From Eubacteriales bacterium (GTDB lineage: Bacteria > Bacillota > Clostridia > Oscillospirales > Oscillospiraceae): 64,000 bases of DNA. The notes below the pieces were generated by a model. The model was not told the DNA's origin, did no database searches, and was given only the letters and a program-made list of their open reading frames with translations. Shown piece by piece: positions 4-27,665 of the stretch. The position numbers were made by a program, and so were the translations under genes. Position 1 is the first letter of the stretch; every line of letters begins with the position of its first letter. The DNA is taken from NCBI GenBank assembly GCA_030536515.1, contig JAUNPV010000011.1, forward strand, positions 1-64,000, given 5' to 3'.

Positions 4-315
4 ATTTCACAAATCCCGAAGGGATTTATTTCACTGAATCCCTCATCCTCTGCCAGCAAAAACGCAGAGGATGAGGGATTCGAGTGCCGAATTTCCCTTC
101 CGTGGGACGGGAAATTCGTAAGGTGGTCGGCCGGTTTTGTGAAATATTTTGCTTGCCGCAAAATGTGAAATATCAGCTTGCGCTGATGTGAAATATTCTG
201 CTAAGGCAGAATGTGAAATGAAATAAATCCCCTCACGCCCGCAGGCATTTCACGCTGCACAGCAGCATTTCACGTGCGAAGCACATTTCACAAATCCCGA
301 AGGGATTTATTTCAC
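4..315. repeat. Array of different small hairpins separated by a constant 7-bp linker
   Basis: The linker ATTTCAC occurs at 4-10, 28-34, 247-253, 267-273, 285-291 and 309-315. Its complement GTGAAAT occurs at 139-145, 165-171, 188-194 and 213-219. Between neighbouring linkers lie short palindromes of different sequence: 11-27 and 292-308 (the same stem, AAATCCC/GGGATTT), 146-164, 172-187, 195-212, 254-266 and 274-284. A further hairpin lies at 89-117. Linkers in the left part read one way and those in the right part the other, so the array as a whole is inverted. No open reading frame is seen. It resembles a REP/BIME-like element. Its function is unknown. Confidence 0.75.
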
Positions 316-316
316 T

Positions 317-390
317 GAATCCCTCATCCTCTGCCATAAAAAAACGCCGCCCTAAAGGGCGGCTTTTTTATGGCAGAGGATGAGGGATTC
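317..390. repeat. Long palindrome mirroring the tRNA-Gln 3' end around its terminator
   Basis: The 20 bases at 317-336 are the exact reverse complement of 371-390, which are the CCA end, acceptor and T-arm of the adjacent tRNA-Gln gene. A terminator hairpin lies between them, so almost the whole 74 bp can fold on itself. A further inverted copy of the same 20-mer lies at 36-55, and a direct copy of most of it at 64-82. Copies of a tRNA 3' end can be footprints of integration, but no integrase gene lies nearby. Confidence 0.8.
341..370 (-). terminator. Bidirectional intrinsic terminator of the tRNA-Gln gene
   Basis: Stem GCCGCCC/GGGCGGC with loop TAAA at 346-363, flanked by an A run on the left and a T run on the right, so it can work on both strands. 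It lies just beyond the tRNA 3' end. Confidence 0.8.
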
Positions 391-26997: not shown

Positions 26998-27012
26998 TTC
27001 CCCGCAATACGG

Positions 27013-27049
27013 AAATCCCCCTTTGACCGCTGGCCAAAGAGGGATTTTT
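27013..27049 (+). terminator. Terminator of araR
   Basis: AAATCCCCCTTTG pairs with CAAAGAGGGATTT and is followed by T residues (27044-27049). Confidence 0.8.
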
Positions 27050-27061
27050 CTTCGCATTTTG

Positions 27062-27090
27062 TTGACAATTTCTGTCAGATTTGGTACGAT
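27062..27090 (+). promoter_or_regulatory. Promoter of the type I toxin mRNA
   Basis: TTGACA (27062-27067), 17-bp spacer, TACGAT (27085-27090). Transcription would start near 27097, giving a leader of about 100 nt with strong hairpins before the toxin start codon. Confidence 0.7.
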
Positions 27091-27199
27091 AACACCGGTC
27101 CCATCGGGACCCAGGGTGCTGTCTTAGATTCAGGCGGTCATGCCCCCATCTTCGGGGGCGCTTCTTTGCCCCCAGTTCGCAGGAAAGGGGGGCTGTCCC

Positions 27200-27283
27200 A
27201 TGAGTACATCCGAAGTTTTAGAGCTTTGTCTTGTAATCATCGGCATTGTCAACCTGGTTTACCAGATTACAAAAAAGAAGTAA
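27200..27283 (+). CDS. 27-residue membrane toxin of a type I toxin-antitoxin locus
   Basis: The peptide MSTSEVLELCLVIIGIVNLV followed by YQITKKK has one predicted membrane helix and a lysine tail, the form of Fst/Ldr and holin-like type I toxins. AGGAAAGGGGGG precedes the ATG. The mRNA has its own promoter and a structured leader. An antisense RNA is transcribed toward it from the other strand, and the two share a terminator region. The leader sequence at 27112-27147 is repeated in inverted orientation at 27322-27357, so both RNAs carry related 5' segments, as in the par (fst) locus of enterococci. Toxicity is inferred, not shown. Confidence 0.72.
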   Translation: MSTSEVLELCLVIIGIVNLVYQITKKK

Positions 27284-27361
27284 CCGCCCCAGTCCCACCT
27301 GTGCGGTTACTTCCTTAACCAAGCATGGGGGCTGACCGTCTATGGGCAGCACCCTGTTTCT
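27271..27361 (-). ncRNA. Antisense antitoxin RNA of the type I locus
   Basis: Minus strand promoter TTGACT (27396-27391), 17-bp spacer, TATAAT (27373-27368). The predicted RNA of about 90 nt starts near 27361. It contains a segment related to the toxin leader (CAGGGTGCTG...GGTCA-GCCCCCAT) and ends in the stem GGAAGTAACCGC/GCGGTTACTTC followed by TTTTTT. It is complementary to the 3' part of the toxin mRNA. The promoter lies over the last codons of the small gene at 27393-27665. Confidence 0.7.
27278..27312. terminator. Shared terminator of the convergent toxin and antisense RNAs
   Basis: Stem arms AGTAACCGC (27279-27287) and GCGGTTACT (27303-27311). The minus strand has a good T run. The plus strand has only scattered T. 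The toxin stop codon lies inside the left arm. Confidence 0.7.
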
Positions 27362-27392
27362 ATGCTTATTATAGTCCAGCCGGAGGAAAAAG

Positions 27393-27665
27393 TCAAGGGG
27401 CGGCGTCGTCGAAGACAATCATTTTCCCACACCGCCCGCAATGGCCGGCGGTGGGCTTTGACCAGTACAGGCCCCGGAATACGGTGCCGCAGTAGGGGCA
27501 GCGGTTGGCACTCAGCAGCAGCACCCCGGCGGCGGCAATCAGCCCCAGCACCAGCGCCAGGGCCAGCCAGCCCCTGGGCAGCAGCAGCGCCAGCGCCGCC
27601 GAGGCAATCAGCAGCACCAGGGCCGCCCGGTTTTTTGCTCTGCTTCCGTTCGGCATGGTTTTCAT
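27393..27665 (-). CDS. Small membrane protein with zinc ribbon
   Basis: A 90-residue protein with two adjacent hydrophobic segments (about residues 14-29 and 32-52). They are followed by a compact CxxC...CxxC motif (RCPYCGTVF and GHCGRCGKM), a likely zinc ribbon facing the cytoplasm. It is the last gene after the sensor operon, 12 bp downstream of the binding-protein gene, and may be co-transcribed. I know no function for it. Confidence 0.7.
   Translation of the reverse strand: MKTMPNGSRAKNRAALVLLIASAALALLLPRGWLALALVLGLIAAAGVLLLSANRCPYCGTVFRGLYWSKPTAGHCGRCGKMIVFDDAAP

What the first reader, a model, noticed from the sequence alone, without database searches (positions are those of the whole stretch)
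27062..27396. Fst/par-like type I toxin with convergent antisense RNA inside the arabinose region
A 27-residue single-span peptide with a lysine tail has its own consensus-spaced promoter (TTGACA-17-TACGAT). An opposing promoter (TTGACT-17-TATAAT) reads an RNA of about 90 nt back into the toxin gene, and the two share a terminator stem. The toxin leader at 27112-27147 is related in inverted orientation to 27322-27357, so both RNAs begin with similar segments, as DRa/DRb do in the enterococcal par (fst) locus. That layout is seen directly. The toxin and antitoxin roles follow from knowledge of the par family. It is encoded on the chromosome between AraR and the sensor operon, and the antitoxin promoter is buried in the coding end of a neighbouring zinc-ribbon gene.
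Basis: partly seen in the sequence, partly recalled or inferred. Interest (0 to 1): 0.82.

Follow-up and report, generated by a model that had tools for sequence, protein, structure and literature searches.

The report
Modular toxin–antisense RNA cassette in Clostridia
A gut bacterium carries a tiny membrane-peptide gene apparently held in check by an opposing RNA; the RNA control parts recur in many related Clostridia with very different peptides, so this looks like a widespread family of RNA-controlled toxin switches.

Summary
A 27-aa single-span peptide (27200-27283) has its own promoter, and a near-consensus opposing promoter would make a ~90-nt RNA overlapping the toxin's 3' end. Related units are widespread: covariance models of the antisense RNA match 41 of 136 genus, 72 of 300 family, 89 of 295 order and 102 of 391 class genomes (overlapping samples), often in tandem. 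Rfam has no match.

It is most likely a type I toxin-antitoxin cassette, but not an Fst/par member: the repeats are inverted, so the two RNAs share a 5' sequence instead of being complementary there; the peptide lacks the Fst motif; 27 of 80 family peptides match Pfam Hol_Tox.

New here: (i) one RNA chassis carries 80 distinct peptides; (ii) the two RNAs' 5' ends co-vary, so the toxin leader could pair with the toxin's own 3' UTR; (iii) toxin lysine codons encode the antisense terminator's U-tract; (iv) between tandem copies with ~98% identical toxin genes, terminator loop and linker are only ~70% identical, suggesting specificity barcodes.

Transcripts, toxicity and fold-back are inferred. 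The cassette is accessory: 10 of 13 relatives with araR and the sensor gene in line lack 546-679 bp here.

The parts
27062..27090 (+). toxin promoter, TTGACA-17-TACGAT
   Evidence: in relatives 49 of 81 have a match of at least 9 of 12 in the 70 nt upstream of the leader (mean 9.0 against 7.3 shuffled)
27097..27111 (+). hairpin at the predicted 5' end of the toxin mRNA (GGTCCC-ATC-GGGACC)
   Evidence: folds; relatives often carry GGTTCC..GGAACC-like hairpins here
27115..27123 (+). toxin-leader 5' word GGTGCTGTC, which can pair with the 3' UTR at 27345-27353
   Evidence: co-variation with the antisense 5' word; pairing predicted in 72 of 72 elements folded, assuming the mRNA reaches T2
27142..27193 (+). 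leader hairpin (27142-27147 with 27154-27159), conserved CTTCTT (27161-27166) and anti-SD GCCCCC (27168-27173) pairing with SD bases 27188-27193
   Evidence: folds; leader alignment; SD mostly paired in predicted folds
27184..27192 (+). Shine-Dalgarno AAAGGGGGG
   Evidence: sequence; similar in relatives
27200..27283 (+). toxin ORF, 27 aa, one hydrophobic span and KKK tail
   Evidence: in 64 related pairs 437 synonymous against 431 non-synonymous codon differences (24% synonymous expected for random changes)
27275..27315 (.). bidirectional terminator stem T1: arms 27275-27287 and 27303-27315; on the - strand its U-tract is the complement of the toxin's Lys codons
   Evidence: antisense tail 6.5 T in 8 on average in 79 relatives
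27288..27302 (.). T1 loop, hypervariable between tandem copies; proposed recognition loop
27316..27326 (.). linker between T1 and the antisense 5' domain, hypervariable
27327..27353 (-). antisense 5' domain GGTGCTGCCCATAGACGGTCAGCCCCC; its complement is a possible second toxin terminator (T2)
27270..27361 (-). predicted antisense RNA (antitoxin), about 90 nt
   Evidence: model R1, 84.3 bits over 27269-27353 (this copy was one of the 32 sequences the model was built from); 5' and 3' ends inferred
27368..27396 (-). antisense promoter TTGACT-17-TATAAT
   Evidence: 104 of 106 related loci score at least 9 of 12 (mean 11.2 against 7.1 shuffled)

Best explanation
This is a chromosomal type I toxin-antitoxin cassette. 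The toxin mRNA encodes a 27-aa membrane peptide. A stronger promoter on the other strand makes a ~90-nt antisense RNA that ends at a shared terminator, with the complement of the toxin's lysine codons as its U-tract. The antisense is complementary to the toxin's 3' end; contact probably starts between the variable terminator loops and zips into a duplex that blocks translation and exposes the mRNA to RNase III. Backup silencing lies in the toxin mRNA: its SD is held by a C-run just upstream and, if transcription runs through T1 to T2, its 5' leader pairs with its own 3' UTR. The antisense 5' domain has the sequence of the toxin leader, so it would compete for that 3' UTR. Peptides are exchanged on this RNA chassis, and loop and linker diversify so that copies stay specific to their partners. 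Shown: sequence layout, conservation, co-variation, decay pattern, loop divergence. Inferred: transcription, toxicity, pairing, RNase III, fold-back, specificity.
For: Two promoters and ORF. Wide conservation: genus 41 of 136 genomes, family 72 of 300, order 89 of 295, class 102 of 391; the class-level model found nothing better than 19.1 bits, E 0.055, in 656 kb of 80 related named loci. Coding constraint. Antisense promoter much stronger than the toxin's. 93.6% of helix cells paired against 26-53% when slid; compensatory changes in 4 of 20 pairs. Leader and antisense 5' words co-vary: 0.50 mismatches per element against 1.58 +/- 0.09 permuted, 0 of 10,000 as low; 26 of the 33 mismatches leave a G-U pair in the fold-back. 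Fold-back predicted in 72 of 72 elements if the mRNA reaches T2. Of 85 genus antisense loci kept, 14 lack an intact toxin by my reading; of 70 leaders, 1 has an intact toxin with its antisense 5' domain replaced. Loop and linker diverge between tandem copies.
Against: No transcript or toxicity data. The window peptide matches no Pfam family and only ComI at 12.7 bits against a cut-off of 55. Whether the toxin mRNA reaches T2 is unknown: T1 has a partial U-tract on the + strand (4.4 T in 8, n = 85) and T2 a similar one (4.8 in 8, n = 107). The fold-back does not hide the SD better: mean unpaired probability of the SD is 0.16 in the full-length folds and 0.06 in those ended at T1. Within single genomes the 5'-word permutation (n = 15) was not significant (2531 of 10,000), and mutual information between the two arms also exceeds permutation at positions 10-13, where they are not identical, so shared ancestry contributes. 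The number of further pair types in the antisense helices is no higher than in shuffles (14 against 14.5). Of the 14 toxin-less antisense copies, 5 score under 53 bits and may be remnants or chance.
Confidence: 0.66

Rival explanations
1. A true member of the Fst/par family: antisense and toxin RNA pair at the terminator and at DRa/DRb-like repeats covering the start site.
For: Convergent promoters, shared bidirectional terminator, SD-sequestering leader and charged C-terminus are as described for par (PMC7472228 passages).
Against: Repeats are inverted, not direct. The Fst motif is absent here and found in 1 of 80 relatives by pattern only. No Fst family in the Pfam or NCBIfam scans; Hol_Tox 27 of 80, PepG1 12 of 80.
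Confidence: 0.05
2. The matching 5' segments are only the ends of a mobile or duplicated element, or are kept alike by gene conversion and descent, without a fold-back or mimicry role.
For: Arms are inverted repeats at the borders of the transcribed unit; units are multi-copy and in tandem; the interval is missing in relatives. Mutual information at positions 10-13 and the non-significant within-genome test show that descent contributes. The fold-back does not change SD pairing in the predicted way.
Against: Identity between the arms stops at about position 9 (0.84-1.00 at positions 1-9, 0.25-0.64 at 10-13), short for gene conversion. 26 of 33 mismatches at positions 2-9 leave a G-U pair. No match in phage or plasmid records or by exact pattern in viral contigs.
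Confidence: 0.22
3. The peptide is a harmless small membrane protein regulated by an antisense RNA, not a toxin.
For: No growth data exist; peptides vary greatly (mean column identity 26%).
Against: Antisense loci outlive their toxin more often than the reverse; many relatives match families named as toxins (Hol_Tox, PepG1); the antisense promoter is the strong one.
Confidence: 0.12

Closest known systems
BsrG/SR4 and TxpA/RatA (Bacillus subtilis), SprG1/SprF1 (Staphylococcus aureus)
   Same: Antisense overlapping the toxin mRNA 3' end, short hydrophobic peptide with charged C-terminus, SD sequestration and RNase III for BsrG/SR4; SprG1 was identified by homology with TxpA/RatA (PMC8309996 passages). 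12 of 80 peptides match PepG1 at E <= 0.01.
   Different: The antisense here is short with a conserved hairpin 5' domain that copies the toxin leader, and one RNA chassis carries many peptides. Relation of the antisense RNAs themselves was not tested.
par / Fst (Enterococcus pAD1)
   Same: Convergent promoters, shared bidirectional terminator, SD held in a leader stem (PMC7472228 passages).
   Different: Inverted instead of direct repeats; no Fst motif or family match.
hok/Sok and aapA/IsoA
   Same: Toxin mRNA predicted to close by a 5'-3' long-distance pairing (PMC6733600 passages).
   Different: Here the SD is held locally whether or not the ends pair, and the antisense 5' end has the sequence of the toxin 5' end. 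No sequence relation tested.
Clostridioides difficile type I modules (CD2517.1-RCd8 and others)
   Same: Convergent overlapping pair, hydrophobic peptide with lysine-rich end, several modules per genome (PMC6563280 passages).
   Different: Reported largely on prophages (same passages); no sequence comparison made here. This family had no match in the phage, plasmid or viral collections searched.
Pfam Hol_Tox PF16935 peptides
   Same: 27 of 80 family peptides match at E <= 0.01; in a separate scan 2 of 10 passed the gathering score.
   Different: The window peptide itself does not match.

Membership tests
Type I toxin-antitoxin | short hydrophobic peptide gene with own promoter and SD | tested here: met
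Type I toxin-antitoxin | antisense RNA encoded opposite the toxin mRNA | tested here: met
   by sequence only: promoter, terminator, overlap and conservation; no transcript data
Type I toxin-antitoxin | peptide is toxic and the RNA silences it | not testable with these tools
   only the indirect decay pattern
par / Fst | direct repeats DRa/DRb giving RNA-RNA complementarity | tested here: not met
   repeats are inverted and give the same sequence in both RNAs (definition from PMC7472228)
par / Fst | bidirectional terminator shared by convergent RNAs | tested here: met
   stem shared by both strands; termination itself not tested
par / Fst | Fst peptide motif P-x-x-x-G or family match | tested here: not met
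   absent in the window peptide; pattern in 1 of 80 relatives; no Fst family
Hol_Tox (PF16935) | Pfam match above gathering score | tested here: inconclusive
   window peptide none; 2 of 10 relatives above it, 27 of 80 at E <= 0.01
TxpA/SprG (PepG1) group | NCBIfam PepG1 match above cut-off | tested here: not met
   window peptide has no PepG1 match; 12 of 80 relatives match at E <= 0.01, the two whose scores I saw at 24.3 and 19.4 bits against a cut-off of 70
TxpA/RatA, BsrG/SR4 | antitoxin RNA related to RatA or SR4 | not tested
   the phage record I asked for was not in the collection
Any Rfam family | match at gathering score | tested here: not met
   window, 27000-27450 at relaxed threshold, ten related loci: no family over the cassette; best sub-threshold hit there 14.6 bits

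The most novel reading that the evidence does not exclude
A class-wide family of type I cassettes, absent from Rfam, with an RNA chassis into which different membrane peptides are plugged. The antisense RNA is a mimic of the toxin mRNA's own 5' end and competes with it for one 3' UTR site, while a fast-changing terminator loop and linker act as a barcode so that tandem duplicates become independent antitoxin pairs almost at once. The toxin's lysine tail is partly dictated by the need for a U-tract on the other strand.
Probability: 0.33. Interest if true: 0.8.

Novelty: new variant of a known kind. Interest (0 to 1): 0.62.

Why it matters
It would give anaerobic gut Clostridia a large toxin-antitoxin family with up to 19 model matches in one genome, not in Rfam and easily missed because the peptides are mostly 20-40 aa. 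The tandem copies offer a natural experiment on how antisense pairs become specific: same toxin, same stem, different loop. The lysine-codon/U-tract overlap is a clean case of one DNA stretch constrained as protein on one strand and as terminator on the other.

Tried and rejected
Fst/par membership: rejected on repeat orientation and family scans. Phage, plasmid or viral carriage: one exact pattern in viral contigs, blastn in phages and plasmids, tblastn with one short relative in phages and another in plasmids: no match; such short queries make the last two weak. Rfam: no relevant match. The idea that the antisense 5' end co-varies with the SD (CAGCCCCC against GGGGGCTG) did not hold by eye in relatives with AAAGGGGGTG and was dropped without a formal test. 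Gut-1 RNA as part of the system: rejected; it is a palindromic repeat that has landed in some units. Solo antisense copies as a separate regulatory class: not pursued. Structure prediction not run (peptide below the 30-aa minimum). No shuffled-genome decoy was run for the covariance models; E-values are rough, and the palindromic stem gives weak opposite-strand matches (about 28-43 bits) inside true units.

Rows dropped and parts used: model R1 used 32 of 34 elements; R3 used 36 of 51 leaders. One search covered 91 of the loci then held. Of its 121 matches I dropped 14 (12 opposite-strand ones, one place seen twice as L025/L140, one unit with the toxin replaced, L031:1104), leaving 107. Model R2 was nevertheless built from all 121 rows, opposite-strand ones included. 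81 of the 107 entered the 5'-word comparison; 9 were dropped, mostly miscalled leaders, and 6 collapsed as duplicates, leaving 66; one search collapsed differently (64). In the genus pairing I kept the 85 best of 106 antisense matches (E <= 3.2e-5; 34 genomes). In one search, 38 of 83 units in multi-unit loci were skipped because my script could not delimit stem and loop (my count). One search used first-match pairing and was redone with nearest-match. The weaker control results (mutual information at positions 10-13, SD pairing) led me to lower the main confidence from 0.68 to 0.66 and the novel case from 0.35 to 0.33, and to raise the descent/gene-conversion rival from 0.20 to 0.22.

Full report
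What is there. Positions 27062-27396 hold a 27-codon ORF (27200-27283) with a strong SD, a consensus-like promoter and a structured leader; on the other strand a near-consensus promoter (27396-27368) reads toward it. Both directions share one stem (27275-27287 with 27303-27315). The antisense folds into a 5' hairpin and this terminator stem (z -3.2 against shuffles), the toxin RNA to T1 folds with z -5.2, its leader alone with z -2.4.

It is a family. The same genome has two more places: C17, intact with another peptide, and C25, where the antisense is intact but leader and toxin are broken. DNA search found matches in 23 of 101 genus genomes, own included. A covariance model of 32 antisense RNAs matched 41 of 136 genus genomes (34 of them at E <= 3.2e-5), 72 of 300 in the family and 89 of 295 in the order, all at E <= 0.001. 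A broader model matched 102 of 391 in the class and 26 of 299 in a phylum sample at E <= 1e-4. The samples overlap and include the window's genome. As a control the broader model gave nothing better than 19.1 bits (E 0.055) in 656 kb of 80 named related loci. Among 22 genomes reached through named loci, 9 matched, among them Flintibacter muris, Oscillibacter sp. 1-3, Bacterium 1XD42-1 (19 matches) and Candidatus Faecousia faecavium; 13 had none, including the three Ruminiclostridium, Pseudobacteroides and Alicyclobacillus; Clostridium sp. Cult2 had one weak match. I read intact units in the first three. The Ca. Faecousia locus is identical to L026 of same-genus genome G093 over the 300 bp compared, at the same place, so the window's genus is probably that of Ca. 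Faecousia. Rfam has no match.

Distant members. Of six class-level loci printed, L227 and L232 show a toxin-like frame by eye and L228-L231 do not. Of the eleven class- or phylum-level units printed, eight carry a peptide frame, one (L254, second) is cut by the contig end, and two (L256, L257 second) have none I would accept.

The peptide. Of 107 antisense loci, 91 passed my SD and hydrophobicity filter, 83 of them with the stop at the same offset from the antisense end; they give 80 distinct peptides. Of the 16 that failed, 4 (L139, L167, L179:1501, L190) still show a peptide-like frame. All 80 have K or R in the last three residues and 56 end KKK. Mean column identity is 26%. Hol_Tox matches 27 of 80, PepG1 12 and ComI 12 at E <= 0.01; the window peptide matches none at that level. 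Codon differences between related pairs are 437 synonymous to 431 non-synonymous, 24% synonymous being expected for random changes; the pairs are not independent. AAGAAG-(T/C)AACCGCC stays where the ORF stops earlier (L008, L031 second unit) and where the toxin is lost (L003, L015, L033), so it is kept for the RNA.

Antisense side. Its promoter scores 11.2 of 12 on average (104 of 106 at 9 or more), the toxin's 9.0 (49 of 81). The terminator helix keeps 94.9% of cells paired with changes on both sides in 3 of 11 pairs; the 5' hairpin 92.0% with 1 of 9. The covariation score exceeds all 500 shuffles, pairs changed on both sides are reached by 19 of 500, and further pair types are no more than in shuffles.

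The inverted repeat. par uses direct repeats so that the RNAs are complementary (PMC7472228, passages). Here the repeats are inverted and both RNAs begin alike. Across 66 unique elements the two 9-mers co-vary (position 3: C-C 32, T-T 29, 5 mismatches; position 7: G-G 49, A-A 14, 3 mismatches). Mean mismatches are 0.50 against 1.58 permuted over all and 1.50 within sampling groups, 0 of 10,000 in both; within single genomes (n = 15) there was no significance. Mutual information on matched positions 1-9 averages 0.21 against 0.012 off the diagonal (largest 0.12); positions 10-13, where the arms are mostly not identical, also exceed permutation (0.20-0.27 against 0.06-0.10), so descent plays a part. 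26 of 33 mismatches at positions 2-9 are of the kind that leaves a G-U pair. The consequence is that the toxin leader is complementary to the toxin's own 3' UTR; if the mRNA extends to T2 this pairing is predicted in 72 of 72 elements, but the SD is paired in either form (unpaired 0.16 full-length, 0.06 at T1), so the fold-back would act on stability or antisense access more than on the SD. 5'-3' closures are known from hok and aapA (PMC6733600, passages).

Roles. With leader and antisense models on the same 136 genomes, 67 of 70 leaders have an antisense downstream and 18 of 85 antisense lack a leader. Read by eye, 5 of the 18 still have a peptide, 13 have none, and one more (L021) is interrupted; 5 of these 14 score under 53 bits and are otherwise unremarkable. 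Of the 3 lone leaders, L251 has an antisense by eye, L250 is degenerate and L023 has an intact toxin with a palindrome in place of the antisense 5' domain. The excess of antitoxin-only copies is what a toxin would leave.

Barcodes. Among 17 tandem pairs (10 loci) with ORFs at least 90% identical, mean identities are ORF 0.98, stem arm 0.99, antisense 5' domain 0.94, leader 0.91, antisense promoter 0.87, but loop 0.70 and linker 0.69 (random loops 0.58 +/- 0.09); the loop is less conserved than the ORF in 15 of 17, the other 2 pairs being (near-)identical copies. Six of the 17 pairs come from one array, so they are not independent. Selection for insulation is the simplest reading; homogenisation of the ORF by gene conversion is another.

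Setting. In L034 and L036 araR is followed within about 60 bp by the sensor gene. Of 80 araR loci, 13 have an alignable sensor gene downstream: in 10 the interval is 546-679 bp shorter than in the window, in L040 394 bp, in L100 1386 bp (its sensor match starts further in), in L074 it is longer. None of the 80 has an antisense match. So the cassette, with the neighbouring 90-aa ORF (found in 4 of 136 genus genomes including this one, two of them weakly), is accessory and not part of arabinose control.

Literature. Eight searches were answered. Their listed top rows (8 to 20 papers each, on Gut-1, returned none) showed no description of this family; the library is open-licence PMC papers only and most hits were not listed, so this is weak evidence of absence. 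For the papers cited I saw passages only, for PMC10537873 the start of the abstract (C-terminal Lys-Arg needed for AapA1 toxicity). The link of the RNase III step to this cassette is by analogy with BsrG/SR4 (PMC8309996, passages).

Noticed in passing
window 137-317; G000 genome-wide: Rfam Gut-1 (RF01706) matches 30 places in this genome (23 over cut-off), many in head-to-head pairs about 17-18 bp apart, so it looks like half of a palindromic interspersed repeat and not a free small RNA gene.
   Followed up: partly
L031:849-1183; L239: In one unit of a tandem array the toxin is replaced by a stretch holding two Gut-1 matches while both RNA 5' domains remain; in L239 similar repeat sequence stands where the leader would be.
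   Followed up: partly
L246, L247, L251: The same chassis carries a different, less hydrophobic peptide beginning MPITLTFHILNWTVTIRV (my reading of the sequences).
   Followed up: no
L252, L253, L257, L258 (class- and phylum-level relatives): Peptides of another type (...FSLGYMFGRHDSKTQK...CFSLGYTLGKDLNKQK) sit on the same antisense chassis.
   Followed up: no
window 27393-27665 (-): 90-aa ORF with a hydrophobic stretch and CxxC pairs, rare in the genus (4 of 136 genomes), shares the accessory interval with the cassette.
   Followed up: partly
L023 downstream of 1669: An intact toxin whose antisense 5' domain is replaced by a palindrome, with the antisense promoter and the stretch opposite the toxin end kept.
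   Followed up: no
alignment A1, antisense terminator loop: Within the hypervariable loop a U and, two bases on, a G are at least 90% conserved in the antisense (T57, G59 of the first sequence), a possible kissing motif.
   Followed up: no
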